Positions 1 to 21,774 of a stretch of 64,000 nt of DNA are shown piece by piece (positions within the stretch are counted from its first letter, which is position 1; every line of letters starts with the position of its first letter). The notes under the pieces were generated by a model. It ran no database searches and was not told where the DNA came from. It saw only the letters and a program-made list of their open reading frames with translations. Source of the stretch: Massilia antarctica (GTDB lineage: Bacteria; Pseudomonadota; Gammaproteobacteria; Burkholderiales; Burkholderiaceae_D); assembly GCF_015689335.1 (NCBI RefSeq), contig NZ_CP065053.1, positions 2,976,001 to 3,040,000 of the forward strand, given 5' to 3'. A program made the position numbers and the translations under genes.

Positions 1-93
1 CCGCTTGCTGTAAGCGGGGTAGCCGACAGGGCGGCATGCGCCCCGGCGTGACAGGAACGGTGCGTGCCGCCTGTAACCGGGCAAAGAGGATAT

Positions 94-366
94 ATGGCTG
101 AAGTCGTGCTATCTGAACATAGCAATTTCCGGGGCCGCGAGAAGCATCTGTATGGTTCGGAGCCGAATTTGAGTGCGCCGGACAAGCATTTTTTCAATGA
201 CAGGGTATCGTCGTTCGTGGTGGTATCGGGACGCTGGAAGGTTTACCGCGACAGCAATTATCGCGGACCGGCCTCGTGTGTGTTCGGACCTGGCCGCTAT
301 ACCTGGGTCGAAGCGGCGGGTATCCCGAATGATTCCATCTCGTCCGTGCGACTGATGGCGGCCTGA
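94..366 (+). CDS. Beta/gamma-crystallin-like small protein
   Basis: A 90-residue protein. The pattern of aromatic and Gly residues (NFRGREKHLYG near the start, SNYRGPASCVFGPGRYTW in the second half, ending NDSISSVRL) matches the Greek-key motifs of the beta/gamma-crystallin family, and there is room for one domain of two motifs. No signal peptide is visible. The ATG at 94 is chosen over an in-frame GTG at 64 because an AAAGAGGA ribosome site sits just upstream. Bacterial members often bind Ca2+; binding here is not shown. The family call is fairly secure, the role unknown. Confidence 0.7.
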   Translation: MAEVVLSEHSNFRGREKHLYGSEPNLSAPDKHFFNDRVSSFVVVSGRWKVYRDSNYRGPASCVFGPGRYTWVEAAGIPNDSISSVRLMAA

Positions 367-6613: not shown

Positions 6614-8482
6614 ATGAACTTGCTAGAGACAATCAACGAACCGGCCGAACTGCGCAAGCTGGCGCGCGCCCAACTGACGCCCCTGGCGCACGAGTTGCGC
6701 CACTTCCTGCTCGATTCCGTGTCCAAGACCGGCGGCCACCTCTCGTCCAACCTGGGCACGGTGGAGCTGACGATTGCGCTGCACTATGTGTTCAACACGC
6801 CGTATGACCGCATCGTGTGGGATGTGGGCCACCAGACCTACTCGCACAAGATCCTCACGGGCCGGCGCGAGCAGATGCACAGCCTGCGCCAGCTGAACGG
6901 CATTTCGGGCTTCCCGCGGCGCGACGAAAGCGAATACGACACCTTCGGCACGGCGCACTCGTCGACCTCGATTTCGGCCGCGCTGGGCATGGCGCAGGCG
7001 GCCAAGATCAAGGGCGAGTCGCGCCATGCGATCGCTGTCATCGGCGACGGTTCCATGACCGCCGGGATGGCCTTCGAGGCGCTCAACAACGCCGGCGTAC
7101 AGGAAGACATCAACCTGCTGGTGGTCTTGAACGACAACGACATGTCGATCTCGCCGCCGGTGGGCGCGCTCAATCGCTACCTGGCGCGCCTGATGTCGGG
7201 ACAGTTCTACGCGGCCGCCAAGAACGTCGGCAAGTCGGTGCTGCCCGGTCCCGTGCTGGAACTGGCCAAGCGCTTCGAGGAACACGCCAAGGGCATGGTG
7301 GTCCCGGCCACGATGTTCGAGGAATTCGGCTTCAACTACATCGGCCCGATCGACGGTCATGACCTGGATTCGCTGATCCCTACCCTGGAAAACATCAAGA
7401 AGCTCAAGGGTCCGCAATTTTTGCACGTGGTGACCAAAAAAGGGCAGGGCTACAAGCTGGCCGAAGCCGATCCGGTGCTGTACCACGGGCCGGGCAAGTT
7501 CAATCCGACCGAAGGCATCCTGCCGGCCAAGGCGGGCAAGACCACTTACACGGAAGTGTTCGGCAACTGGCTGTGCGACATGGCCGCTGCCGACAAGCGC
7601 CTGGTCGGCATCACGCCGGCCATGCGCGAAGGCTCAGGCATGGTGGCCTTTGAAGAGCAGTTCCCGGACCGCTATTTCGACGTCGGCATCGCCGAGCAGC
7701 ATTCGGTGACCTTCGCCGGCGGCCTGGCGACCGAAGGCCTGAAACCCGTGGTGGCGATCTACTCGACCTTTTTGCAGCGCGCCTACGACCAGCTGATTCA
7801 CGACGTGGCGCTGCAAAACCTGGACGTGCTGTTCGCGCTCGACCGCGCGGGTCTGGTGGGCGCCGACGGCGCCACCCACGCCGGCAACTACGACATCGCT
7901 TACCTGCGCTGCATTCCGAACATGGTCGTCATGGCCGCGTCGGACGAAAACGAATGCCGCCGGATGCTGACCACCGGCTACCAGTACAAGGGGCCGGCGG
8001 CGGTACGTTATCCGCGCGGTGCCGGCATTGGCGCGGTCATCGAAAAAGAACTGACAACGCTCCCGATCGGCAAGGGCGAGATCAAACGCGAAGGCAAGAG
8101 CGTGGCGATCCTGGCCTTCGGCTCGATGGTGGCGCGCAGCGTCGTCGCCGGCGAGGAGCTGGATGCGACGGTGGCCAATATGCGCTTCATCAAGCCGCTC
8201 GACGTGGAGCTGGTCAAGCGCCTGGCGCAGGAGCACGACTACCTGGTGACGGTGGAAGAGGGCGCCGTCATGGGCGGCGCCGGTTCGGCGGTGGCCGAGG
8301 CGCTGGCGGCCGAAGGCATCCTCAAACCCCTGCTGATCCTCGGCCTGCCCGACAAATTCATCGACCATGGCGACCCGGCGGCCTTGCTGGCCAGCGTGGG
8401 ACTCGATGCCAAGGGAATCGCCGCGTCGATCCGCCAGCGGTTTGGTGCAGCGGAGCCGCGCCTGGTGGTCAACAACACCTGA
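6614..8482 (+). CDS. dxs: 1-deoxy-D-xylulose-5-phosphate synthase
   Basis: A 622-residue thiamine-diphosphate enzyme of full family length. The TPP motif is [20 protein letters not shown] through NDNDMSIS. The transketolase pyrimidine domain ([18 protein letters not shown]) and the C-terminal domain follow. It joins pyruvate and glyceraldehyde 3-phosphate to DXP, the first step of the MEP pathway. The ATG follows the ispA TAA directly. A strong hairpin at 8522-8547 ends the operon. Confidence 0.97.
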
Positions 8483-8521
8483 CACGCCTCGCAAGAAACG
8501 CCGCGCGACGCCGCCAACGAC

Positions 8522-8547
8522 CAACGCCAACCTTCGGGTTGGCGTTG
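8522..8547 (+). terminator. Hairpin terminator after dxs
   Basis: A perfect 11-bp stem (CAACGCCAACC / GGTTGGCGTTG) closed by the extra-stable TTCG tetraloop, 40 bases after the dxs stop. The tail is only weakly T-rich (TCGTTTCG), so termination may be imperfect or Rho-assisted. It marks the end of xseB-ispA-dxs. Confidence 0.8.
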
Positions 8548-8696
8548 TCGTTTCGGGCGCGCATGCTAACCAGGCGTCGATCGCTCGTCCTATTTGTCCG
8601 ATCCACGAAACAATCTGTTTCATTCGCAGCTATATATCCAACAAGTTAAACGATTTACTCTTCTCTCACGCAATTCAATTTATGACGAGAGACGAT

Positions 8697-9518
8697 ATGA
8701 CAAGCAATACCAAGCTCACATGGAAGCATTTCCCCGCAGGCCAGAACGGTTTTTTCCGCGCGCCGGTGCTGCTGCAAGGCCCGACTGAAGCGCTGCTGAT
8801 CGATGGCGGCTTCACGCTCTCCGACGGCAAGGCCGTGGCCGACGCCATCGCCGCCGGCGGCAAGCCGCTCAAGGCGGTCTACGTCAGCCAGAGCGACCCG
8901 GATTACTATTTCAGCCTGGGCGCGGTACGCAGCGCATTTCCCGAGGTGCCGGTGCTTGCCGCACATGCCACGGTCGCCGCGATCCACGCCAACGTTCAAA
9001 AGAAGCTCGATGTCTGGGGGCCGCAACTGAAGGCCGACGGCCCGCAAACCCTGGCCGATGTGGTGCTGCCCGCCGCATCGGATGCGTCCACCTTGAGTAT
9101 CGACGGCGAAACCATCGAGATTGTGAATGCGGAAGGGATGAGCAACCGGCGTTACTTGTGGGTGCCTTCGCTGGAAGCCATTTTCGGCGGCGTGCTGGTG
9201 TTCTCCGGCGTGCACGTCTGGACGGCCGATACCGCCACCCCCGAACTGCGCGCGGCCTGGGTGAAAAACCTGGACGCGATGGCGGCGCGCCAGCCGCGCA
9301 TCGTGGTGCCGGGCCATGGCACGGTCGATGCGCCAGCCGATGCATCGGCCATCGCCTATACGCGCGGCTACCTGCTGGCGTTCGAGGAAGAAGCCGCAAA
9401 GGCCGCTGACAGCGCCGCCCTGATCGCCGCCATGAAGCTGCGCTACCCCGACGCCGGCATGGAAGTGGCCCTCACCACCGGCGCCAAGGTGGTGCTTGGC
9501 GAAATGAAGTGGGGTTGA
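8697..9518 (+). CDS. MBL-fold protein with degenerate metal site
   Basis: A 273-residue metallo-beta-lactamase-fold protein, starting at the second of two nearby in-frame ATGs (8682 and 8697). The fold is shown by LLIDGGF (about 34-39), then VYVSQSDPDYYF, and VPGHGT near 205-209. Normal members have S/T-H-x-H-x-D-H at the second position; here residues 64-70 read SQSDPDY, so the three histidines are replaced and only the Asp (D69) remains. The later motif H207 is kept. Either it binds metal differently or it is not a hydrolase. The NTF2-like gene starts 2 bases after its stop, so the pair is an operon. Confidence 0.72.
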   Translation: MTSNTKLTWKHFPAGQNGFFRAPVLLQGPTEALLIDGGFTLSDGKAVADAIAAGGKPLKAVYVSQSDPDYYFSLGAVRSAFPEVPVLAAHATVAAIHANVQKKLDVWGPQLKADGPQTLADVVLPAASDASTLSIDGETIEIVNAEGMSNRRYLWVPSLEAIFGGVLVFSGVHVWTADTATPELRAAWVKNLDAMAARQPRIVVPGHGTVDAPADASAIAYTRGYLLAFEEEAAKAADSAALIAAMKLRYPDAGMEVALTTGAKVVLGEMKWG

Positions 9519-9520
9519 TC

Positions 9521-9913
9521 ATGCGTTCCAACCTGGAGCTACTGCGTTCGACCTACGAAGGCCAGTCCGGCGAGAACGCGACGCGCCTGCTGGACTTGCT
9601 GGCAGCGGACGCCGAATGGGTCGAAGCGGCCGGTTTTCCGTACGCCGGCACCTTCCGCGGTCCCGACGCCATCGTGGCCAATGTGTTCAGGCGGCTTGCC
9701 ACCGAGTGGATCGGCTATCGCGCCGAGGCGGACAGCTTTCTCGAACAGGGCGAGCAGATCGTGGCCTTCGGCTCCTACTCGGGCACGTACAAGGAAACCG
9801 GACGCGCCATGCGGGCCGCCTTTGCCCATCACTACACTTTCAGGGATGGCAAGATCGCGCACATGGTGCAGTACGTCGACAGTTACACGGTGCGCCAGGC
9901 GATGCAGCCCTGA
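9521..9913 (+). CDS. NTF2-like (SnoaL-type) protein
   Basis: A 130-residue single-domain protein with the SnoaL/NTF2 cone-fold pattern: N-terminal helix LLRSTYEG, DAEWVEAAGFPYAGTFRGPD, the strand FGSYSGTYKETGRAM, and the closing strand GKIAHMVQYVDSYTV. Members act as isomerases, cyclases or ligand binders, and the fold alone does not reveal a substrate. It starts 2 bases after the MBL-fold gene and is presumably cotranscribed. The ATG at 9521 is preferred over a GTG four codons earlier that lies inside the upstream gene. Confidence 0.75.
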   Translation: MRSNLELLRSTYEGQSGENATRLLDLLAADAEWVEAAGFPYAGTFRGPDAIVANVFRRLATEWIGYRAEADSFLEQGEQIVAFGSYSGTYKETGRAMRAAFAHHYTFRDGKIAHMVQYVDSYTVRQAMQP

Positions 9914-9940
9914 TGCATTCGTCCGCGCGGGTTCGGGTCT

Positions 9941-10549
9941 TCATCCGAAGACCTGGGCGATGCGCGCGCGCAGCACCGGCACCAGCTCCTGCTCGAACCA
10001 GGGATTACGCTGCAGCCAGGGCGTATTGCGCGGCGAGGGATGCGGCAGCGGGAAATACCCCGGTGCCACATCGCGCCACGCCTGGACGGTGGCGGTCAGC
10101 GAGGCCTTGCGGCGCGCGCCCAGAAAATGGCGCTGGGCGTGCGCGCCAATCAGCAAGGTCAATTCGATATCCGGCAATTTGGCCAGCAACTGGTCCAGCC
10201 AGAGGTCGGCGCATTCGGTGCGCGGCGGCAGATCGCCACCGTTGCCCCGGCCCGGGTAGCAGTATCCCATCGGGATGATGGCGAAGCGCCCGGGATCGTA
10301 GAAGGCATTCGCATCCACGCCCATCCACTCGCGCAACCGCGTGCCGCTGGCGTCATCCCACGGGATGCCGGAGGCGTGCACGCGCGCGCCCGGCGCCTGC
10401 CCGACGATCAGCACGCGCGCACCTTCGCCTACCTGCACGATGGGGCGCGGGCCTTTGGGCAGATGCGCTTCGCAGGCGCGGCATGCGCGCACGTCGGCCA
10501 GCAGGCTCTCCAGATTTGCATAGCGCTTGAGTACCGCGCTGTCAGTCAT
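9941..10549 (-). CDS. Uracil-DNA glycosylase superfamily protein
   Basis: A 202-residue protein of the UDG superfamily. Motif 1 is VGQAPGARVHASG followed by IPWDDASG, then IIPMGYCYPG, and the C-terminal motif is HPSPRNTPWLQRN. Cysteines in the N-terminal CRACEAHL segment resemble those of Fe-S UDGs but are too few for a complete 4-Cys cluster. Expected role: removal of uracil or other damaged bases. The start at 10549 (MTDSAVLKRY) overlaps the end of the DUF488 gene by eight bases; an alternative in-frame ATG at 10600 lies deeper inside that gene. Confidence 0.8.
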   Translation of the reverse strand: MTDSAVLKRYANLESLLADVRACRACEAHLPKGPRPIVQVGEGARVLIVGQAPGARVHASGIPWDDASGTRLREWMGVDANAFYDPGRFAIIPMGYCYPGRGNGGDLPPRTECADLWLDQLLAKLPDIELTLLIGAHAQRHFLGARRKASLTATVQAWRDVAPGYFPLPHPSPRNTPWLQRNPWFEQELVPVLRARIAQVFG

Positions 10550-11108
10550 CGGCTGGGCCGGCGGGCGGTGCCGGGTAGGTGATGCGTTCGCCGTCGACAT
10601 GGGCGAACGGCGTCAGGACATGCGGGCGGCGTCCTTTGGGACCGATGATATGTTCGACGCCAATGTGGCGTACCAGCAGCGCGTCGCCGACCATCGAGCG
10701 GTGGCAGCGCCACGGAACGGCTTCTGCGCACATCAGGACACAGCGCTGCGTTTGCGCGAGCTCGCACAATGCGTCCATGCCGTCGGCGAATTCGGGTGAC
10801 TGCATGTGGTCGGCGTAGCCGCGGAACGAGGCATTGCGCCAGCCGGTGTTGGACGAATCCTTTGCTGCGTGACGCAAGCCGCCCAGGGCCTGCAGGTAGC
10901 GGTAATCGATGCCCGCGGCGGCGAGGGAATGGGGCAACGCATCCTGGTTGAACTGGGGATTGTGGCGCGAGCGCGGCACGGTGCGCACATCGACCACGCA
11001 GCCGATCCGGTTGCTCGCAAGCAGATCCAGAAACGCCTCCAGCGGCCGGTTGGAATGGCCGATCGTACAAACGAGTACCTCGGGCGGGATGTTTGCGGGC
11101 TTTTCCAC
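10542..11108 (-). CDS. DUF488 family protein
   Basis: A DUF488 protein. The core begins VCTIGHSNRPLEAFLDLL and continues with VDVRTVPRSRHNPQFN, YRYLQALGG and the Cys pair around LMCAEAVPWRCHR. The function of the family is not established. The proposed start is a GTG at 11108 (VEKPANIPPEV). The frame stays open to an ATG at 11258, but that extension is Arg/Pro-rich and does not look coded. The gene overlaps the UDG gene by eight bases, so the two are likely coexpressed, and a nucleic-acid-related role is plausible. Confidence 0.75.
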   Translation of the reverse strand: MEKPANIPPEVLVCTIGHSNRPLEAFLDLLASNRIGCVVDVRTVPRSRHNPQFNQDALPHSLAAAGIDYRYLQALGGLRHAAKDSSNTGWRNASFRGYADHMQSPEFADGMDALCELAQTQRCVLMCAEAVPWRCHRSMVGDALLVRHIGVEHIIGPKGRRPHVLTPFAHVDGERITYPAPPAGPADD

Positions 11109-12136
11109 GAGTGAGCAAGAAGGGGCGAGGGCTGGCCGGACAGTCGTCCAAGGCGCGATCCCATGATAGCACTGCCTTTGCGGTGCACGCTTGGCTCGCC
11201 GCCGCACCCGTATCCGGACCCGCGTGGGCGCGACAAGTGCAGCCGGCGGCGCAAACATGGCGAAAACCGGCCAGATCGGATGAAAGCGTTTTCAGACGGG
11301 GGGGGAGGACACAGGCCGGCTCCGGCGCACGGGTTTGCGATGGATTGACAATCGATCGCTCGGCGAGCGCCGGGTGGCATGTGCGTATTTTCAATATTTA
11401 ACAATTCGATGCAGATCCGCGCGCGTTTTTTGCTTTCCTCAGCCGCAAATTAATTACCTAATTATAATTTTTATGTCGCAGTGGTTTACCCTATTCTCAT
11501 AGAGAAAAACCGGCTGCGGATTGGCATGCGTCGCAAATTTTCCACACTAATCCCATCGCGCGGGCCGGCCTGTCATCGATTTTCCATGCTCGTCGGGTAT
11601 TTATAGCAATGTCCCCATTCAGTCTTGACGTTTAACCTTTCCTTACGATATCGTTCCGTCAATACGAGGGCGGCAGCGGGAATGCCGCCTGCGCATTTGA
11701 CGGTCGGCCAAGCGCACCATGCCGCCCGTCAGACTCGCTGAAACGATCGAATGGCCAAAAACACGACAATTTGTCGTTTTTTTTGAAAATCGGTTGGAAA
11801 CGTTTTCACAGCTGTAAACCAGCCTGATTCTCACCCCGAATTCAGGTTCTCGACTTCCGTGCATGCCGTGACTTTCCTTTGGGCATTGGAAAGGCCGGCT
11901 GTCGGAAAGGGCGGGCAATCTTGCCGCCCGGCGAACACGCGCCGTTGCCCATGCAGCGGCCCTGGTCGCAACGTGCCCCGAGCGTGGCCGCCCGCCACGC
12001 TCCACCGCACGGGTAGGCATTGGCGCAGTGCGTGCGGTTCCCGCGCGTGGTGGGCCGGGCCTACGTCCAAAACGACCGTTCTTCGGATACCTACGCTTTT
12101 TTGTCAGCTTCGCCGCTCACAACGAATGGAATAACT
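11109..12136. other. Long non-coding leader region
   Basis: About 1 kb without a convincing gene between the divergent DUF488 gene and the 12-21 kb cluster. Base composition is patchy: 11380-11480 and 11620-11640 are clearly AT-rich, in a high-GC background. It contains TTGACG at about 11624 (a possible -35 box with no clear -10), a short palindrome CGACAATTTGTCG followed by a run of eight T at about 11764-11784, and a LacI-type palindrome at 11795-11808. The promoter of the downstream cluster is presumably here. Confidence 0.6.
11795..11808. promoter_or_regulatory. LacI-family-type operator upstream of the 12-21 kb cluster
   Basis: TGGAAACGTTTTCA, a 14-base near-palindrome centred on CG. 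It differs at one position from the perfect LacI-type site TGAAAACGTTTTCA and at two positions from each of the paired sites at 47545-47579. It lies about 330 bases before the first cluster gene, far for a simple repressor site unless the promoter is also far upstream. Functional status is inferred from the pattern only. Confidence 0.4.
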
Positions 12137-14047
12137 ATGCCTCTCGATCATATAAATACGCCTCTCTCCGCCAGCGACACCGCCGAATCCAACACCCCTC
12201 AGGAAGCCGCCGGCATGCCCGACGTGGTGGTTGGATTCGCCTGTCCACCCGATGTCTGCGCCAGCCTGCTGATGCAGCGTTCGGTCGCCAACGCGATTCA
12301 CCCTGAACTTGTGGAAGCGGGCAAGATCCGCAAACAGTCGGCCTACAAGCGCTTCCAGAATCTCGACGCCAAGGACCGGTATCGGGACGAACTGATGAGC
12401 AAACTCGTGGCCAGCTGGACGGCCACCCACGGCGCGCAAGCGGCACAAACGGCGCGCCTCATGTTCATCCGGCTGGCATCCGAGCTGAAAAAGAACGGCG
12501 CCGTTATTTTCGGTTCGCTCGTCAACAGCACCGAGTTCCGCAAGCTGGTCGATGAATACACCCGCGTCCTGCACCAGCAGGGCAGCCAGAGTCTGATCCA
12601 CTCGTACATGAACCTCGGGCATAACCCTGAATTCCTGAGCAATCCCGATATCAACGGGGCGTTTCTGCATCCGCTTCTGGTGGCGATGATCTCTTACCAG
12701 ATGGGCGGCCCGGTGCGTATCGTCGATGCGCGCGGCAAGGATGCGGAACCGATTTCCGTGCTGGCGCTCGATAACATGCTGCACATCGATAACACGCCAT
12801 TCAATGAAGAATACAAGATCATCCTGACTTGGGAACGCGGCACCACTGCGGGTCCCAAAGGCCAGAATTTCGTCTTCATTCCCGGTTCCCAGCACGGCGC
12901 CCGCAATTGCTTCGTGAATGAGCAAGGCGCGGCCTGGTCGAGCGAAAATGCCAGTATTTTCATTACCGAAGATAAGATCCAGCAAGCCTTCGACGTTCAA
13001 TTTGCCGAATTTGGAAGCGCTTCACCCGTGGTGGTCGAAGCCGCCCATCCAGACAAGCCATTAACGTCCGTATTCGCCGCCGGCGCCATCGTGCATCACC
13101 GCTACCGGACCGAAGTCGGCGAGCCGCGCAGCTGCCTGATCCTGGCGTTCCACCGCGCCGACGACAATCCGGGCCAGTTCGTCGATGCCAAATACCTGGC
13201 CGATATGGTCCAGGACGACGCGCTCAATCGCCTGCTGATGGGTTTTCACGGCAAAAATACCGAGGCCGCCTATATCGAGGCGCTGGTCGAGCGTGCCGAC
13301 CGCCTGTTCGATAAACTCATCGACCTCGATTCGCAAAAAGATGGCGCTGAAATGCTCGATCAGGGCCGGCTGGCCCTGTCGCCGCAGGAAGTCGTGGATT
13401 GGAAAAAAACCTGCACCCTGGCGCCGACGGTGGCCATGCTCAAGGACCGGGCCAAGCTGGTCACGGTTGACCAGACCTTGCCGCATCAGCAATTCGTGGA
13501 CTTGATCGAACGGCTGATGATCTTCGATAAGCACTGCCCGCTGGACCTGATCCTGTATGAAGACAATCACGAGGAAATCAGGAAATGGACCCGCAACCAG
13601 ATCCGCGAAATGCAGCTCGGCCGCTTGAAAACGCGTCTGAACGCATGGACCGCCACCATCGGCCAGCCAACCCAGGCCGACCTGCTCGATCCGGCCCAGC
13701 TGCGGGCGCTGGCGATGGAAGTATCGGCTTGCGCCACGCAGTCGATGACGAGCGGGGCGCCTGCGGTGCTCGGGCCGACCGAACGCATCTCCGCCTACGA
13801 CGCTTATCGCTCGCTGGCGCAGTTCCTGGTCGATATTGGCGAGTCGATCGTGCGCTGCGAAAACAGCCAGCATTTTCTCTCGACCTGCCTGTTCGTGTTC
13901 TGGGCCACGGATACGCTCGATATCGTGCAAGGGAAAACCAACCCGGTGGTACACGCGGCCGGGGCCAAACTGCTGGCCAATTACATCGCCACGGCCATTT
14001 TGCTTGAAATGCAAAAGCAAAAATCCGGGTTGCCGTCGGCCGCCTGA
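12137..14047 (+). CDS. Large putative Fe(II)/2OG-oxygenase-like protein, copy 1
   Basis: A 636-residue protein I cannot assign to a named family. The central region looks like a double-stranded-beta-helix oxygenase: H216-x-D218 in MLHIDNTPF, then a GPKGQNFVFIPGSQHG stretch, then H320-H321 in IVHHRYRT and R331 in GEPRSC ten residues after H321, the usual spacing of the 2-oxoglutarate-binding Arg. The N-terminal 100 residues and the C-terminal ~280 residues (helical, for example DLIERLMIFDKHCPLDLILY) are unlike ordinary PhyH or TauD enzymes. No signal peptide. The ATG at 12137 is chosen because the sequence before it (TGGAATAACT) matches that of the paralog. First gene of a five-gene same-strand block. 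Confidence 0.6.
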   Translation: MPLDHINTPLSASDTAESNTPQEAAGMPDVVVGFACPPDVCASLLMQRSVANAIHPELVEAGKIRKQSAYKRFQNLDAKDRYRDELMSKLVASWTATHGAQAAQTARLMFIRLASELKKNGAVIFGSLVNSTEFRKLVDEYTRVLHQQGSQSLIHSYMNLGHNPEFLSNPDINGAFLHPLLVAMISYQMGGPVRIVDARGKDAEPISVLALDNMLHIDNTPFNEEYKIILTWERGTTAGPKGQNFVFIPGSQHGARNCFVNEQGAAWSSENASIFITEDKIQQAFDVQFAEFGSASPVVVEAAHPDKPLTSVFAAGAIVHHRYRTEVGEPRSCLILAFHRADDNPGQFVDAKYLADMVQDDALNRLLMGFHGKNTEAAYIEALVERADRLFDKLIDLDSQKDGAEMLDQGRLALSPQEVVDWKKTCTLAPTVAMLKDRAKLVTVDQTLPHQQFVDLIERLMIFDKHCPLDLILYEDNHEEIRKWTRNQIREMQLGRLKTRLNAWTATIGQPTQADLLDPAQLRALAMEVSACATQSMTSGAPAVLGPTERISAYDAYRSLAQFLVDIGESIVRCENSQHFLSTCLFVFWATDTLDIVQGKTNPVVHAAGAKLLANYIATAILLEMQKQKSGLPSAA

Positions 14048-14065
14048 TCCACCATTAATGCTCTC

Positions 14066-14086
14066 GGCCTGCGGTGGACGCAGGCC
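14066..14086 (+). promoter_or_regulatory. Intercistronic hairpin between the two paralogs
   Basis: A perfect 8-bp stem, GGCCTGCG / CGCAGGCC, with a 5-base loop (GTGGA), in the 53-base gap between copies 1 and 2. No T-run follows, so it is more likely an RNA-stability or processing element than a terminator. Confidence 0.5.
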
Positions 14087-14100
14087 TGACTGGAATGACT

Positions 14101-15942
14101 ATGCCCCATGCAGATCAAATACAACAAGCGCCTCCTGACATCACTGTCGGTTTTTCCTGCACCGCCGAGGAACGCGATAGCCTCCTGAAAGTGCGGGCCG
14201 GCGCCCAGGCAATCCATCCGGAGCTGGTCGAAGCGGGCAAGGTGCGCAAGCTCTCCGCCTATAAACGCTTCTGGAACCTCGACACAAAGCAGCAGTTTCG
14301 CGAACAGCTGGTCGAGACCCTGGTGGCCGAGTGGCGCACAACCCATGGCCCGGAAAAAGCCGAGACGGCGCGGCTGCTGTTTGTCCGGCTTACGTCGGAA
14401 CTCGACCAGCGCGGTGCCGTGATTTTCGGATCGCTGATCGATAACGAAGCGTTTCGCGGGCTGGTCGACGAGTACACGCGAATTAACAATAGCCTGGGCA
14501 GCCAAAGCTGGATTCATTCGTATATCAACCTCGGCAATCACCTCGACTTCCTGGGCAATCCCGCCTTCAGCGGCGCCTTTCTGCACCCGCTGCTGGTGGC
14601 CATGGTGTCCTGCCAGATCGGCGGTCCGCTGCGCATCGTCGATGCGCGCGGCAAGGATGCCGAGCCGATTTCGGTGCTGGCGCAGGATAATATGCTGCAC
14701 ATCGATAACACGCCATTCAACGATGAATACAAGGTCATCCTGACCTGGGAACGCGGCCAGGCATCGGGGCCGAAGGGACAGAATTTCGTCATCATCCCGG
14801 GCACGCACCAGGGCCTGCGCAATTGCTTCGTGAATGAACAGGGCGAAGCCTGGTCCACGGAAAACGCCAGCGTGTTTACTTCGGACCAGAAGATCGAACA
14901 GGCCTTCGATATTCAAAGCAAGGTCTTCGGCCATCCATCGGCGGCGGTGGTCGAGATCAAGCACGAAAACAAGCCGCTGACCACGGTCTTCGCCTCCGGT
15001 TCGCTGGTGCATCACCGCTACCGGACCGAAGGCGGACGCCCGCGCAGCTGCCTGACGGTGTGCTTCCGCGGCGTGGACAATCCCGGCCAGTTCGTCGATA
15101 CCAAGCACCTGGGCGATATCGTCGAGGACCACGCCCTGAACCGTTTTCTGTTCGGCTTTCACGACAAGAATTCGGGCGCGGATTTTATCGCGGCATTCGC
15201 CGACCGCGCGGATGAGATTTTCGAGAAACTGAAGGATCTGTCCTTGCAATGGAACGGCGCCGAGATCGTCGACCAGCGCACGCGCGAACTGTCCGGACCG
15301 GAACTGGAAACATGGAAAGCGCTCTGCACGCGCGCACCGACAGTCGAAACCTTGAAGGCCAGGGAGAATCTGTTCAAGGTCGACGAGTGCCTGGCGCTCC
15401 CGCAGTTCATGGACTTGATCGAAAAGCTGATGATCTTCGACAAGCACGGTCCGCTCGATCTGATCCTGTACGAAGACAGTCACGAAGAAATCAGGAAGTG
15501 GGCCCGCAACCAGATCCGGGAAATGAAGTTCGACAGCCTGAAAAAGCGCCTGGCGACGTGGTCGCATCTGGTGTACCAGCCGGCCAGGGAAGATGCGCTG
15601 GCGCCGCTCGCCTTGAAGGTACTGGCCGAGGAAGTGGCGGGCTATGCGCTTCGGTCCATGCAAGGCGACGAGAAAGCGGTGCTCGGCGAAAGCGAAAAAA
15701 TCTCCGCGCGCGATGCCTACCGCTCGCTCTGGCAATTGCTGCTCGATTTGGGTGAAGCCATCCTGCGCTGCGAAACCAATCAGGATTTTCTGTCGACTTC
15801 CCTGTTCATTTTCTGGGCGGTCGATACGCTCGACATTCTCCAGCAACACGCGCACAAGGCAGTGCAGGCGGCCGGCGTGAAGCTGCTGGCGAACTATATC
15901 GCGACCACCATCCTCGTTGAAATGCAGCGCAACGCGAAGTAA
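14101..15942 (+). CDS. Large putative Fe(II)/2OG-oxygenase-like protein, copy 2
   Basis: A 613-residue paralog of the preceding gene, roughly 60% identical by eye along its whole length. All candidate catalytic residues are kept: H200-x-D202 (MLHIDNTPF), H304-H305 (LVHHRYRT) and R315 (RPRSC). The spacing between HxD and the distal His is the same as in copy 1. The sequence before the ATG (TGGAATGACT) also matches copy 1, which fixes both starts. Divergence is strongest in the N-terminal 25 residues and in the C-terminal half (RRLATWSHL-type region). The two may act on different substrates or form a heterodimer. Function unknown. Confidence 0.6.
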   Translation: MPHADQIQQAPPDITVGFSCTAEERDSLLKVRAGAQAIHPELVEAGKVRKLSAYKRFWNLDTKQQFREQLVETLVAEWRTTHGPEKAETARLLFVRLTSELDQRGAVIFGSLIDNEAFRGLVDEYTRINNSLGSQSWIHSYINLGNHLDFLGNPAFSGAFLHPLLVAMVSCQIGGPLRIVDARGKDAEPISVLAQDNMLHIDNTPFNDEYKVILTWERGQASGPKGQNFVIIPGTHQGLRNCFVNEQGEAWSTENASVFTSDQKIEQAFDIQSKVFGHPSAAVVEIKHENKPLTTVFASGSLVHHRYRTEGGRPRSCLTVCFRGVDNPGQFVDTKHLGDIVEDHALNRFLFGFHDKNSGADFIAAFADRADEIFEKLKDLSLQWNGAEIVDQRTRELSGPELETWKALCTRAPTVETLKARENLFKVDECLALPQFMDLIEKLMIFDKHGPLDLILYEDSHEEIRKWARNQIREMKFDSLKKRLATWSHLVYQPAREDALAPLALKVLAEEVAGYALRSMQGDEKAVLGESEKISARDAYRSLWQLLLDLGEAILRCETNQDFLSTSLFIFWAVDTLDILQQHAHKAVQAAGVKLLANYIATTILVEMQRNAK

Positions 15943-15962
15943 CGATGCCAGGCCTGGAACGG

Positions 15963-15991
15963 TAGCGCGGGCGGCCGCTCCGCCGGCGCTA
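15963..15991 (+). promoter_or_regulatory. Intercistronic hairpin before the ATP-grasp gene
   Basis: TAGCGC pairs with GCGCTA (6 bp). After one G-G mismatch, GGCGG pairs with CCGCC (5 bp) around a CCGCT loop. It lies 20 bases after the stop of copy 2, and the following 30 bases are fairly T-rich but without a clean run. It may attenuate transcription into the ligase and exporter genes, or stabilise the upstream mRNA. Confidence 0.45.
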
Positions 15992-16053
15992 ACGTTCGTT
16001 CGCTTGCATTCATTTTGTCCAGAAAAAGTCACAGATAAAAAAGGCAGTCGATA

Positions 16054-17298
16054 GTGAAATCTGAAAAACCTCATGTCGTGGTAATCAACGGCTGGTCCGA
16101 AGCGTGGTCGGATGGCCGCCATTCCGTCGATTCGGTGATCGACAACACCCGCTTCGATGCGAGCTATATCGTCGATCAGAACGGGTACAAGGGTTTGACG
16201 CGCGCAACGCAAGAGAGCGGCCGGGTGCGCGTGGTGGACGACATCCAGTCGCTCGGGGAACTGGAGGCCGCGTTTTCCGCACTGGCGCAGCAATTCGGCC
16301 CGGTGTTCCGCCTGATCGCCGTCAGCGAATGGGATATCCTGAGCGCGGCCACGCTGCGCGAGAAATTCGGTATCGAGGGCCTCCATACGCGCCAGGCGCT
16401 GGCGGTGCGCGACAAGGTCGCGATGAAAACCGTTGTCGGCGCCGCGGGATTCAATATTCCCGCCTATCAGGGCTGTTCCAGTGTCGAGGAACTGCGTCAA
16501 TTCGTCGGCCGCCACGGCTACCCGGTGGTGCTCAAACCGCGCAGCCTGATGGGCGGCAGGGGAGTGAAGATCATCGCCAGCAAGGCCCAGCTGGACGCCG
16601 AACAGCACGGGTACGACTTCCACGATCAGGAATGCGAAGTCTTTCACCAGGGGACCAGTTTTCACGTCGATGGACTTCTGCAGAACGGACAGCTGGTGTA
16701 TGCGATCGCTTTCCGCAACAACCGTCCGCCGATTTCCTTTTCCCGCGGCCAGCCGCTCGGCGCCATTTCCCTGCCGGCCGCGAAGCTGAAAGATAAACTC
16801 GTCGCGTTTTCCGTGGCAGTGGCCCGCAGCCTGGAGTTATTCGATAACCATTTCCATCTGGAGTTGATTCTCGATGAAAGCGACGAGCATGCGGAACCGG
16901 TATTCATCGAGGTCGGCGCGAGGGTCGGCGGTGCCGATATTCCGGCGTCGATTGAAATGCTCACCGGGGTCGATCCGATTCTTCAGCAGATCCGCGTCGA
17001 GCTGCAACAGGCGCCGCTGCCGCTGCTGGCCGATGGCGGGCAATCGGCCGCGTACCTGATGATTCCCTTCCCGCGCGCGCTTCCCTGCCGCATTCTCACG
17101 ATCGCCGCTCTGCCGCCCGCGCGCTGCCCCACCTTGGTCAAGTCGTTTCGCCGCCAGGCGGGCGACATCCTGGATGGAAAAGGCGGCTTCAGGAAGATTC
17201 CGGCGCGCTTCCTGATGCTCGGGAATTACGAGGATGTGAAACGCGATTTCGAGCACCTCGACAAGGTGCCGACCTTCGATTCGGTCGCGGTGTCTTGA
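16054..17298 (+). CDS. ATP-grasp carboxylate-amine ligase-like protein
   Basis: A 414-residue ATP-grasp protein. An N-terminal Rossmann-like domain (PHVVVINGWSEA) precedes the ATP-grasp core: YPVVLKPRSLMGGRGVKII binds ATP, HLELILD and FIEVGARVGGADIP carry the metal ligands, and the C-terminal domain ends near residue 400. The arrangement is that of free-standing amino-acid ligases (BacD or L-amino-acid ligase type), which join a carboxylate to an amine via an acyl phosphate. The start is GTG, with AAGG ten bases upstream. It stands between the oxygenase-like pair and the ABC exporter, as in small peptide or amino-acid antimetabolite pathways; the substrate is unknown. Confidence 0.78.
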   Translation: MKSEKPHVVVINGWSEAWSDGRHSVDSVIDNTRFDASYIVDQNGYKGLTRATQESGRVRVVDDIQSLGELEAAFSALAQQFGPVFRLIAVSEWDILSAATLREKFGIEGLHTRQALAVRDKVAMKTVVGAAGFNIPAYQGCSSVEELRQFVGRHGYPVVLKPRSLMGGRGVKIIASKAQLDAEQHGYDFHDQECEVFHQGTSFHVDGLLQNGQLVYAIAFRNNRPPISFSRGQPLGAISLPAAKLKDKLVAFSVAVARSLELFDNHFHLELILDESDEHAEPVFIEVGARVGGADIPASIEMLTGVDPILQQIRVELQQAPLPLLADGGQSAAYLMIPFPRALPCRILTIAALPPARCPTLVKSFRRQAGDILDGKGGFRKIPARFLMLGNYEDVKRDFEHLDKVPTFDSVAVS

Positions 17299-17341
17299 TG
17301 ATCCGATTTCTTATCCTAACGACAGTCAGGCTGGTGAAGTC

Positions 17342-19072
17342 ATGACAGCAGTGAAAGCGACGCCCTTTTCGCTCGTGAGACAACGCGTGGTCCGGCGCTG
17401 GGCGGTCTACGGTTGCGGCTTTTTGGCCATCCTGTTGGCCAACCTGTGCGAAAGCCTGATACCGAAATTTATCCAATGGACGCTCGATCTCCTGCTCGGG
17501 CAGGAAAGCGGCGCTTTCTGGAAGCCGACAGCGGCGACGGCCGACAAACCCCACACCCTGATCCTGCTGGCGCTGGCATTGCTCCTGGTTGTGATATGCA
17601 GCCTGCTGTTCAAATTTTCCTGGCGCATGATCCTGTTCAAGGAAACGCATCTGGTCGGGCATGAATTAAAAAAGGATTTGTGGGCGTCCTCCCTGTCGAT
17701 GCCTTTGTCGGGGAAGGACGGTTTGCGTTTCGGCGACCTGATGAACCGCATCAGCAACGACTGGAACCGGGCCAGGATCATTCACGGCTACACCGTGGCG
17801 AACAGCGTCGATTATGTCGTGCTGGTGGCGATGTCGCTGGTGTACATGGTGAATATCCATGCGAAGTTATGCTTGATCCTTATGAGCCCGCTGCTGCTGC
17901 TTCCCATCATTAGCGTCGAATTGGGCCGGCTGCAGCAAGCGCGCTTTTTGACTGCCCAGGAAACCCTGTCGCGGCTGTACGAAACCATCGCGCATTCGAT
18001 CAAGTCGGTCAGGCTGCAAAGGGCGACGGCGACCGAGCCGTTCTGGCTGCACAAGCTCGATCAGTCGGCGCGCGCCTACGCCGAACAAAACTATCGCTGC
18101 CTGAAGGTCGGTGACCTGAATGTGGCGATGTCCTTCCTGCCGTATTTCGTGTCGCTGGTTATCCTGTTCAGTTATGGGATCGTGCTGGTCAGGGATGGCG
18201 ACATCAGTATCGGCGCCTACATCTCGCTGCATGTGTACATGATGGTGATCCATGACGTGATATCCGATTTCGGTTCGCTGCTGGCGGAGTGGCGGATGGG
18301 CTTTACCAGTTACCGCCGCCTGTTCGATGTGTTGCACTCTCCCGGCCAGGCGCCTCCAGCGCTGCCGCACGCGCCGCAGCGGGATGCGGGTGCGCGGCCG
18401 GCCATTGAAGTCGAGCAGCTGACCTTCGGCTATGCCGGATCGGCGCCGCTGGTTCGCGCACTGAGTTTCGATGTCAGCGCCGGCCAGAAAATTGCTGTCA
18501 TCGGCCGGGTCGGTACCGGCAAGACCACTCTCGCCACCTTGCTCGCCGGCGGCATGGACGAATACAGCGGCACCATCCGGATCAATGGGCGCGACCTCAA
18601 GGATGCTTCGCGCAGCTGGCTCGATTCGCAGATTACGCTGGTGCATCAGAAAAGCCTCGTCCTCGGCCGCAGTATCCGTGTCAATCTCGATCCGCTTGAG
18701 CAGTTTTCAGACGAGGTGCTGATCGACAGCCTCAAAGTGGTCGAGCTGTGGGATGAAATCGCCGGGCTGTCGAAGGGATTGAGCGAAGCGCTTGGCGAGG
18801 GGGGAGGAAAGCTCTCCGGCGGACAAAGGCAACGGCTTTGCCTGGCCCGGGCGATTATTCGCGACACGCCAGTCATCATCCTCGATGACTGCCTCGGCGC
18901 CATCGATCCCACGACGGAGAAAATCATCGTCGAGCGTCTCTGGAACATTTGGACCGACAAGATCGTCATTTTTATTACCCATCGGGCTGCCGACCTGGAT
19001 TTTTGCGATGGCGTTCTGCAGCTCGATGCACCGGTGTCGCCTGCTTTATCACTGAAGAACCGCGCCGAATGA
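17342..19072 (+). CDS. ABC exporter half-transporter with degenerate Walker B
   Basis: A 576-residue fused permease-ATPase. Six membrane helices lie within residues ~18-300 and the nucleotide-binding domain in ~355-570. Walker A is GRVGTGKTT (K394) and the signature is a canonical LSGGQRQR (from 491). Walker B is VIILDDCLGAID, so the catalytic Glu is replaced by Asp (D516). The H-loop His is present (H547). This is the pattern of the degenerate-site subunit in heterodimeric exporters of the TM287/288 type. It shares a four-base ATGA overlap with the next gene, its probable partner. Confidence 0.88.
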   Translation: MTAVKATPFSLVRQRVVRRWAVYGCGFLAILLANLCESLIPKFIQWTLDLLLGQESGAFWKPTAATADKPHTLILLALALLLVVICSLLFKFSWRMILFKETHLVGHELKKDLWASSLSMPLSGKDGLRFGDLMNRISNDWNRARIIHGYTVANSVDYVVLVAMSLVYMVNIHAKLCLILMSPLLLLPIISVELGRLQQARFLTAQETLSRLYETIAHSIKSVRLQRATATEPFWLHKLDQSARAYAEQNYRCLKVGDLNVAMSFLPYFVSLVILFSYGIVLVRDGDISIGAYISLHVYMMVIHDVISDFGSLLAEWRMGFTSYRRLFDVLHSPGQAPPALPHAPQRDAGARPAIEVEQLTFGYAGSAPLVRALSFDVSAGQKIAVIGRVGTGKTTLATLLAGGMDEYSGTIRINGRDLKDASRSWLDSQITLVHQKSLVLGRSIRVNLDPLEQFSDEVLIDSLKVVELWDEIAGLSKGLSEALGEGGGKLSGGQRQRLCLARAIIRDTPVIILDDCLGAIDPTTEKIIVERLWNIWTDKIVIFITHRAADLDFCDGVLQLDAPVSPALSLKNRAE

Positions 19073-20850
19073 AAAATACATCGTCACCCATCGACTACCT
19101 GAAAACGAGTGTGTTCCTGCTCGTTACCTACAACACGAAAAAAGCCAGGTTTGCCCTGTCGATATTCCTGCTGATGCTGTCGGGCGGCGTGGTGCTGCTG
19201 TCCTCGCAGCTCACGGGCAGCCTGGTCGAGCACCTGGCCGCCAAAGGCACGCAAAACCCCTGGACCAATTTCGTGGCGCCGATCCTGGTGCTGGAAATTC
19301 TTAATCTGGTCTTCTTATACTACGGAAAATCCACGGGAACCTTTGTTGCCAACGACATTACGCTCAATATCCGCCTCGCCTTGTTCAAGAAATTTTCCCG
19401 GCTGCCGATGAAGTATTTCGACCAGGTGTCGATCGGCGAATTGCTCACCCGCTCGACCAGCGAAGTGTCCGGGCTCGAAGCGTTTTTGACCTTGTCGATG
19501 CCGCGGGTGCTGATCTCCTTGATTGTCGTGCTGCTGATCCTGGCGTTCATGCTGTTTACCGATGTCTATTTCGGTTCGCTGATTTTGCTGTCCAGCCTTC
19601 CGGCCGTGGTATTCGTGTTCCTTGTGATCGGCCGCATCCGGGATTCCTTGCGCGCTTACAAAGCCCATCTGGCCGGGCTGAACGGACAATTCGCGGAATA
19701 TCTGCAAATCCTGCCGTTGATGAAAGTCGATGTCTTTTCACGCTACAGCGAAAAAATGATCGGTGCATCGTCGGAAGAGCTGCTGGCGAAAGCCATCTTC
19801 ATGATCAAGATTAATTCGCTGGCCCGCTCATTCGCCAATCTGCTCTGCTATTTCCCAACCTTCATGGTGCTGTTCGTCGGCGGCTATTTCACCCTCAGCC
19901 AACAGCTTTCCCTGGGTTTGCTGGTGACCTTCCTGCGATTCAGCGAACGGCTGCGTCGCCCCGTTGCCATCCTGCTTACCGAATTGCAGACACTCCAGGA
20001 CGCATCCGTCACGGTCGAGAGGCTCAGCGCCTTGATGAGCGCCGACGAAGAGACGCAGGCCTTGCCCGAGCCGGCCGGGCCGCTAAGGCGGCTCGACGGC
20101 AACGTGGTTTTCGACCGCGTGTGGCTCGCCTATCAGCCCGGCAAACCGGTCTTGAAGGGCTTGAGTTTTTCGGTACCGCGTGGCAGTTCGGTGGGGCTGG
20201 TGGGACGCACCGGTTCGGGAAAAACCACGACGATTTCGCTGATCAGCCATTTGTACACCATCATGCAAGGGGATATCACGATCGATGGGCAGCCGCTGGA
20301 GCGTTGGAACCGCTCGCATTTGCGCCAGCAAATCGGCGTGGTCAATCAAAACCCGGTCTTCATACGCGGAACCTTGCGCGACAACCTGAATATGAGCCTC
20401 AGCGAGGGCCTGGATAAAGCCAGGGACGACCGCGCGCTTCTTGACGCCTGCAAGCTCACCGGCCTGCACGACCTGATGGAAAAATCGTCGCGCGATCTGG
20501 ATAGTCCGATCCATGACAATGGGGGCAATCTGAGCGCGGGCGAATGCCAGCTGCTCGCCATCACGCGCGTGCTGCTGCGCGATCCGGCGATTTTGATACT
20601 CGACGAAGCCAGCGCGCATACGGATTCGCTGACGGAGGACCGGGTGGAGTTCGCCCTGGCGCAGTTGAAACATGGCCGCACCTCGTTCACGGTCGCTCAT
20701 CGCCTCAACTCCGTGGTCGCCTGCGACAAGATCCTGGTGTTCGCCGATGGCAGGGTGGTGGAAGAGGGTACCCACGACGATCTGCTGGCGCGCAAGGGCG
20801 AGTATTTCACCCTGTATCGCCAGCATGGGGAGACCGCGGAGCTATCCTAA
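19069..20850 (+). CDS. ABC exporter half-transporter with degenerate signature motif
   Basis: A 593-residue fused permease-ATPase with six helices in residues ~12-300. Walker A is GRTGSGKTTT (K385), Walker B is canonical LILDEASAHTD (catalytic E513), and the H-loop His is H544. The signature motif is LSAGE (488-492) instead of LSGGQ. Paired with the preceding protein, this gives one consensus ATP site (this Walker A/B plus the partner's LSGGQ) and one degenerate site. Start MKNTSSPIDY overlaps the upstream stop. It probably exports the product of the cluster; the 3' end overlaps the convergent gene by nine bases. Confidence 0.88.
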   Translation: MKNTSSPIDYLKTSVFLLVTYNTKKARFALSIFLLMLSGGVVLLSSQLTGSLVEHLAAKGTQNPWTNFVAPILVLEILNLVFLYYGKSTGTFVANDITLNIRLALFKKFSRLPMKYFDQVSIGELLTRSTSEVSGLEAFLTLSMPRVLISLIVVLLILAFMLFTDVYFGSLILLSSLPAVVFVFLVIGRIRDSLRAYKAHLAGLNGQFAEYLQILPLMKVDVFSRYSEKMIGASSEELLAKAIFMIKINSLARSFANLLCYFPTFMVLFVGGYFTLSQQLSLGLLVTFLRFSERLRRPVAILLTELQTLQDASVTVERLSALMSADEETQALPEPAGPLRRLDGNVVFDRVWLAYQPGKPVLKGLSFSVPRGSSVGLVGRTGSGKTTTISLISHLYTIMQGDITIDGQPLERWNRSHLRQQIGVVNQNPVFIRGTLRDNLNMSLSEGLDKARDDRALLDACKLTGLHDLMEKSSRDLDSPIHDNGGNLSAGECQLLAITRVLLRDPAILILDEASAHTDSLTEDRVEFALAQLKHGRTSFTVAHRLNSVVACDKILVFADGRVVEEGTHDDLLARKGEYFTLYRQHGETAELS

Positions 20851-21774
20851 GTCGATATCGACGATGGAAGGCAGCGCTTCGAGCGCGAGATAATCGACCT
20901 GCGCGATCGACGCGCGCCAATTGTCCAGGTGCAACGCCAGCAAGGGCCGCAATGCATCCCTGAACGCGGCGCGGTTTTCATCGGTGATGAATGGCGCGGC
21001 CAGCCTGTCGTCGAGCAGGAACGATTCCGCCCATGTCGCTTGCGGCGCTTGGCTTCCCAGATCGGCGGGGAAGGCGCTTCCCGCATCGCATATCTGCCGG
21101 GTCAGGCCGAGCCACAACAGTATCTGGGCGCGCCAGTGCGGATCGTCAATCGCAAAGATCGAATCGACCCAACCCTTGATGTCACGCGGATGGAGATACT
21201 TCAGGCAGAAAAACAGCGATGCCGACAGGTCGCTGCAGACATCCCACCAACCCCACGTCTCATGAGGACTGGCTGGCGGGCCATTGAACACATGGTCGAG
21301 GATCAGCCGGCCATCGCGCCAGCGCGACGGTCCCATGATGACCTGTCCCAGCGTCTGCAATACCTCGCCATAGGTCCAATCGTGGATGCGGACCGGGTAA
21401 TGGATAAAGAATGCTGTCGCCAGCATCTCGATGGTCTTATGGTCCGAAGGCGCTTGCTTTATCGCGATCAGCCGGGGAAGCAGGTAAGCGAACCAGTCAT
21501 CCCATTCGTCCATATGGCCGAAGCTTGATGTCCCGCTGGCGATTTCCCACAGTGCCTCCGTGATCTGGCTATCGGAGAGCTGGTCGACGGTCGTGGTACG
21601 GAGGTCGCCGAACATCTTGCGGTCGTAACCCATGAACCACGCTTCACCCATGACCACCGATGGCTTGGGCGCCGCCTGTTGCATGCGCGCGAGCGCTTGC
21701 GGGTCAGGTCCCGTGCCGGGCCGCCACGTCAAGCCCGGGCCAGGCGCCGGCTCGCGCTTGGCGCGCTTGCCCAC
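20842..21774 (-). CDS. Hypothetical protein
   Basis: A 310-residue soluble protein with no signal peptide or membrane segment, rich in Trp and acidic residues in the middle (WDDWFAYLLPRLIAIKQ, ETWGWWDVCSDLSASLFFCL). I recognise no family. It looks mostly helical. The GTG start at 21774 directly follows the DUF5329 TAA and has no ribosome site; an ATG at residue 31 (MQQAAPKPSV) is possible. Its 3' end overlaps the second ABC gene in convergent orientation, leaving no room for a terminator between them. Confidence 0.65.
   Translation of the reverse strand: MGKRAKREPAPGPGLTWRPGTGPDPQALARMQQAAPKPSVVMGEAWFMGYDRKMFGDLRTTTVDQLSDSQITEALWEIASGTSSFGHMDEWDDWFAYLLPRLIAIKQAPSDHKTIEMLATAFFIHYPVRIHDWTYGEVLQTLGQVIMGPSRWRDGRLILDHVFNGPPASPHETWGWWDVCSDLSASLFFCLKYLHPRDIKGWVDSIFAIDDPHWRAQILLWLGLTRQICDAGSAFPADLGSQAPQATWAESFLLDDRLAAPFITDENRAAFRDALRPLLALHLDNWRASIAQVDYLALEALPSIVDIDLG

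What the first reader, a model, noticed from the sequence alone, without database searches (positions are those of the whole stretch)
12137..20850. Undescribed oxygenase / ATP-grasp / ABC-exporter cluster
Five same-strand genes: two large paralogs with candidate 2OG-oxygenase residues, one ATP-grasp ligase and a paired ABC exporter, all behind a long leader. Seen directly: the motifs, spacing, shared translation signals and overlaps. Established: free-standing ATP-grasp ligases joined to oxygenases and exporters are typical of small peptide or modified amino-acid metabolites. Inferred: this block makes and exports such a compound. There is no NRPS, PKS, carrier protein or precursor peptide, so the product would be a dipeptide-like or amino-acid-derived molecule. 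The oxygenase-like proteins are twice the usual length, and their terminal parts match nothing I know.
Basis: partly seen in the sequence, partly recalled or inferred. Interest (0 to 1): 0.85.

Follow-up and report, generated by a model that had tools for sequence, protein, structure and literature searches.

The report
Acquired oxygenase, ligase and exporter cluster
A horizontally acquired set of five genes looks built to make and export a small oxidised amino-acid-like molecule, and its two main enzymes belong to an unnamed oxygenase-like family that also occurs in chlamydia-like bacteria, Legionella relatives and mycobacteria.

The parts
12137..14047 (+). gene A: 636-aa Fe(II)/2OG-oxygenase-like protein, paralog of B; metal residues H216, D218, H320 and co-substrate R331 by alignment with B
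   Evidence: no Pfam/NCBIfam match at E<=1; ortholog P0003 73%
14101..15942 (+). gene B: 613-aa Fe(II)/2OG-oxygenase-like protein (start 14101; most calls used 14095, giving 615 aa)
14368..15183 (+). B residues about 92-363 (numbered from 14095): double-stranded-beta-helix oxygenase core
   Evidence: VIA-align ranges, commonly 92..363
15184..15942 (+). B residues 364-615: conserved helical C-terminal domain with no convincing fold match
16054..17298 (+). gene C: ATP-grasp ligase; closest solved relative by sequence is an L-amino acid ligase (4wd3)
17342..19072 (+). gene D: ABC exporter half (TMD+NBD), LSGGQ signature, Walker B ending LDD
19069..20850 (+). gene E: ABC exporter half (TMD+NBD), LSAGE signature, Walker B ending LDE
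11259..12136 (.). 878-bp divergent intergenic region upstream of A; no recognisable element above chance
9932..20728 (.). maximal island absent from congener G192; G148 keeps UDG-like DNA and lacks 11196-20850

Best explanation
The block is a horizontally acquired pathway for a small exported metabolite. SHOWN: five co-directional genes absent from four congeners with matching flanks; B has a predicted PhyH-like double-stranded beta-helix, and A and B carry an invariant HxD...H motif and an Arg 11 residues later; C is an ATP-grasp ligase nearest to L-amino-acid ligases; D and E have the sequence hallmarks of a heterodimeric exporter with one degenerate ATP site. INFERRED: A and B bind Fe(II) and 2-oxoglutarate and hydroxylate or otherwise oxidise an amino-acid-like substrate at two positions or in two steps; C activates a carboxylate as acyl phosphate and joins it to an amine, giving a dipeptide-like or amide product; D-E pumps it out. 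The retained Asp of HxD argues against a halogenase (family knowledge, recalled). The helical C-terminal domain probably shapes the substrate site or a partner interface. Elsewhere the same oxygenase occurs without the ligase, and in mycobacteria with an exporter, so oxidation and export may be the ancient part and the ligase a local addition.
For: Fold. Invariant residues 74 of 74 rows. Ligase; motifs RDK..M, KP, FHLE and E.GAR.GG invariant in 8 of 8 rows. Exporter motifs. Set conserved in a second organism: P0003, P0002, P0122 and P0140 all list 10748 as longest contig. Oxygenase-exporter adjacency in 3 of 3 mycobacterial genomes with a full-length member. A 31%-identical ligase in G016 sits near a glutamate mutase, a second ATP-grasp, a luciferase-like monooxygenase and a class II tRNA-synthetase-like gene, an amino-acid-metabolite setting. 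Island.
Against: No activity, metal or substrate was tested. In 12 of 13 fetched loci the oxygenase has no C, D or E homologue within the flank held (L003, L005 and L007 are cut by contig ends). Of the 13 genomes behind those loci 6 have an ATP-grasp match to C, the best being L. drozanskii at E 9e-20 and 28% over part of C, elsewhere in the genome. C has no match in the three mycobacterial loci. D is nearer to an Oligoflexus exporter (36%) than to the mycobacterial one (26%), so the exporter link may be convergent. The same-contig inference rests on an equal contig length, and E was not searched.
Confidence: 0.6

Rival explanations
1. A and B oxidise a cellular macromolecule or lipid, as the relatives without ligase and exporter may do, and C, D and E are a separate ligase-exporter unit that happens to share the island.
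For: 12 of 13 fetched relatives have no C, D or E homologue within the flank held; gaps of 53 and 111 bases separate A, B and C.
Against: Orthologs of A-D stay together, apparently on one contig, in a second organism at 63-73% identity, and oxygenase and exporter are neighbours in 3 of 3 mycobacterial genomes.
Confidence: 0.2
2. A and B are oxygenase-fold proteins without oxygenase activity, for example sensors or binding proteins.
For: Twice normal length, an extra helical domain with 34 invariant columns in 15 rows, and no sequence match to an oxygenase family.
Against: All predicted metal and 2OG residues are kept in 74 of 74 rows down to 39% identity; non-catalytic relatives commonly lose them (recalled).
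Confidence: 0.12
3. The island is an efflux and resistance unit: D-E expel a toxic compound and A, B and C modify it.
For: Rv0194, a fused exporter probably orthologous to the one beside the mycobacterial homologue, is described as a drug efflux transporter (passages of PMC7761784).
Against: No resistance or defence family stood out for A, B or C; two oxygenases plus a ligase fit synthesis better than detoxification (inference).
Confidence: 0.08

Closest known systems
PhyH-type Fe(II)/2OG oxygenases (EctD, KanJ, SnoN, GriE, proline hydroxylase H11)
   Different: Only 9-17% identity in the 50 VIA rows; A and B match no Pfam model at E<=1; extra N-terminal 90 and C-terminal 250 residues
L-amino acid ligases (4wd3, BacD, BL00235) and dapdiamide synthase DdaF
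   Same: ATP-grasp domain; 4wd3 E 1.3e-12 over C residues 56-351, DdaF model E 4.8e-8
   Different: Far below the curated cut-off (32 against 840 bits for DdaF); substrates cannot be assigned
Heterodimeric ABC exporters with one degenerate site; the fused mycobacterial exporter (Rv0194 type)
   Same: D and the N half: LSGGQ plus LDD; E and the C half: LSAG plus LDE; same order in all three mycobacterial loci
   Different: 26-30% identity; two genes here, one fused gene in mycobacteria
Rv0193c of M. tuberculosis (probable identity of P0119)
   Same: P0119: same family, 42% identity to B, same HxD and distal His
   Different: No C homologue in the three mycobacterial loci examined (M. tuberculosis itself was not fetched); no biochemical function in the passages seen of the 4 papers found

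Membership tests
Fe(II)/2OG oxygenase superfamily (structural) | double-stranded beta-helix core | tested here: met
Fe(II)/2OG oxygenase superfamily (structural) | HxD...H facial triad | tested here: met
   H202, D204, H306 in 74 of 74 aligned rows; superposition on the metal of a solved enzyme was not measured
Fe(II)/2OG oxygenase superfamily (structural) | Arg binding the 2OG carboxylate, about 11 residues after the distal His (spacing recalled) | tested here: met
   R317, 11 after H306, in 74 of 74 rows
Fe(II)/2OG oxygenase superfamily (structural) | iron- and 2OG-dependent turnover | not testable with these tools
   needs purified protein
Pfam/NCBIfam sequence families (for example PhyH PF05721) | match to a curated profile | tested here: not met
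   A and B: no family at E<=1. For the 74 members PhyH is not among the 25 Pfam families shown of 68; 25 of 37 NCBIfam families shown
ATP-grasp carboxylate-amine ligase | ATP-grasp domain with catalytic-looking motifs | tested here: met
   CPSase_L_D2 36.6 bits against cut-off 19.8; RDK, KP and E.GAR.GG invariant in 8 of 8 rows
L-amino acid ligase (dipeptide former) | joins two unprotected amino acids with ATP | not testable with these tools
   nearest solved chain 4wd3, E 1.3e-12; none of the 25 NCBIfam models shown of 35 reached its cut-off
Heterodimeric ABC exporter | two TMD-NBD halves, one composite site degenerate | tested here: met
   ABC_membrane and ABC_tran in both; D LDD, E LSAGE; pairing itself not testable here

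The most novel reading that the evidence does not exclude
A and B belong to an undescribed family of two-domain Fe(II)/2OG oxygenases that has spread by horizontal transfer through amoeba- and host-associated bacteria (Chlamydiota, Legionellales, Thiotrichales and slow-growing mycobacteria; lifestyle recalled). With its asymmetric ABC exporter it forms an oxygenase-exporter module that makes and secretes a small oxidised metabolite. The window holds its most elaborate version seen here, with a doubled oxygenase and an added amino-acid ligase, and the mycobacterial version explains the neighbours Rv0193c and Rv0194.
Probability: 0.3. Interest if true: 0.8.

Novelty: new variant of a known kind. 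Interest (0 to 1): 0.6.

Why it matters
It turns an unannotated protein family (229 hits in one capped search) into a testable enzyme prediction. The family reaches chlamydia-like bacteria, Legionella relatives and, very probably, the M. tuberculosis gene Rv0193c beside the Rv0194 exporter, whose natural substrate I believe is unknown (recalled, not searched). The window's five-gene version gives another organism in which substrate, ligation partner and exported product could be worked out together.

Full report
WHAT IS THERE. Five + strand genes lie at 12137-20850: A (12137-14047, 636 aa), B (14101-15942, 613 aa), C (16054-17298, GTG start, 414 aa), D (17342-19072, 576 aa) and E (19069-20850, 593 aa). 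Gaps are 53, 111, 43 and -4 bases. A and B share the start context TGGAATRACTATGCC, so 14101 is the likelier B start; most calls used 14095, and residue numbers of B below count from 14095. Pfam names the neighbours as ordinary genes: DXP synthase, a metallo-beta-lactamase-fold protein, a UDG-superfamily glycosylase and DUF488 on the left; DUF5329 and a cobalamin adenosyltransferase on the right, after an unassigned 310-aa protein. Ten proteins were scanned there, nine of them from the window; I did not scan the rest of the window for NRPS or PKS genes.

ISLAND. The right-flank 310-aa gene was found in 6 of 17 genomes of the genus sample: the window's own, four congeners at 65-89% and G231 at 37%. 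I compared the four congeners with window 5001-30000 by blastn. In G192 window 9931 joins 20729 with 6 bases between. In G148 UDG-like DNA is kept and window 11196-20850 is missing. In G159 and G181 window 8480 and about 20858 are separated by about 3.9 kb of DNA with no match at E<=1e-5. G231 and the 11 genomes without the gene were not examined. The block has 54-62% G+C against 62-69% in most of the flanks. B occurs in 1 of 392 genomes of the family sample, the window's own. So it looks like an acquired island in a variable spot.

LIGASE AND EXPORTER. C exceeds the Pfam cut-off for CPSase_L_D2 only. Its best solved relative is the L-amino acid ligase 4wd3 (E 1.3e-12), then BacD. Seven relatives at 28-68% keep RDK, KP, FHLE and E.GAR.GG. 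D and E are complete TMD-NBD halves. D has LSGGQ and LDD, E has LSAGE and LDE, the pattern of a heterodimeric exporter with one degenerate site (recalled).

IS THE SET CONSERVED? Orthologs P0003 (A, 73%), P0002 (B, 72%), P0122 (C, 68%) and P0140 (D, 63%) all list one contig of 10,748 bases. I infer that it is the same contig and could not fetch it; E was not searched. In a tree of 39 rows A groups with P0003 and B with P0002 (100/99 each), so the duplication predates the split. The foursome is 100/100. It joins 16 rows, of which those with names are Chlamydiota and Verrucomicrobiota, at 94/96, just under the tool's starred level; long branches were warned of elsewhere in the tree.

THE FAMILY ELSEWHERE. 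The genome scan gave 13 loci: three Chlamydiota and two verrucomicrobial MAGs, Legionella saoudiensis, L. rowbothamii and L. drozanskii, a Legionellaceae MAG, a Thiotrichales bacterium, two proteobacterial MAGs and Mycobacterium simulans. In 12 of 13 no C, D or E homologue lies in the flank held (up to 10 kb a side; L003, L005 and L007 are cut by contig ends). In a 140-genome sample around Legionella 5 had a member, all genomes of loci already known. So the family can act without this ligase and exporter beside it.

THE MYCOBACTERIAL LINK. Of 198 mycobacterial genomes 3 have full-length members; two more had short marginal matches at E 6e-4 and 1e-3. In 3 of 3 a fused exporter (1239 aa in M. 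simulans, others 89-92% identical) lies divergently beside the gene. In all three its N half has LSGGQ plus LDD and its C half LSAGQ plus LDE. D matches the N half (26%) and E the C half (30%) in M. simulans. C has no match in the three loci. In a 40-genome sample only the 2 genomes with the oxygenase have a close exporter ortholog (89-100%); in the rows listed the other 38 gave at best 47% over part of the protein (further rows not listed). This counts as one inherited event, and D is closer to other exporters (36%), so it supports rather than proves a functional link. Neighbours in M. simulans (molybdopterin oxidoreductase, TetR, LuxR, MFS, ILVD/EDD-type dehydratase) recall the M. tuberculosis Rv0189c-Rv0197c order (recalled).

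RV0193C. P0119 (615 aa, 1840 member sequences; 42% to B, 82% to M. simulans) is probably Rv0193c. Its residue 33 is Ala, matching the A33T variant at 226475 in PMC9173592 (passages). The upstream variant 226676 at -105 in PMC6435705 (passage) places the start so that 226475 is codon 33. One residue and the geometry are the whole test; M. tuberculosis itself was not fetched. PMC3087520 lists Rv0193c as a hypothetical protein in the horizontally acquired List B, genes of the common ancestor of M. tuberculosis, M. kansasii, M. marinum and M. ulcerans (passages). The PMC9173592 passage names it among genes in transposon-screen categories (survival in macrophages, growth in mouse spleen, or growth advantage on disruption) without saying which. 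PMC6435705 ties it to raised expression in lineage 1. Four papers in the library name it; in the passages seen none gives a biochemical function. Rv0194 is described as a single-gene exporter with two TMDs and two NBDs, implicated in drug efflux and raised in hypoxia (PMC7761784 passages).

CONCLUSION. The small-molecule reading is the best available, at about 0.6. That A and B are Fe(II)/2OG oxygenases I hold at about 0.85. The identity of the product cannot be told from sequence.

Noticed in passing
L004:9340-9834, L005:5957-6451, L006:9138-9788: In three loci (two labelled Chlamydiota, one Verrucomicrobia) a stand-alone APS-kinase-like gene lies divergently beside the oxygenase homologue (Pfam APS_kinase E about 1e-35 in all three); a possible alternative partner.
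   Followed up: partly
L004:11885-13012 and L005:8444-9586: The gene on the other side of the oxygenase in L004 and L005, with similar protein starts, is a 375-380 aa protein with no Pfam match at E<=0.001.
   Followed up: no
L058:3766-13598: Genome G016 of the same family has a gene group with two ATP-grasp ligases, glutamate mutase MutE, FMN reductase, luciferase-like monooxygenase, a class II tRNA-synthetase-like gene and a 500-aa protein without Pfam match: probably another amino-acid-derived metabolite pathway.
   Followed up: partly
window 8480-20858: The same chromosomal spot carries different content in four congeners (nothing, UDG-like DNA, or about 3.9 kb of other DNA), so it looks like an insertion hotspot.
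   Followed up: partly
window 20842-21774 (-): 310-aa flank gene with no Pfam match, found in 6 of 17 genus genomes.
   Followed up: no
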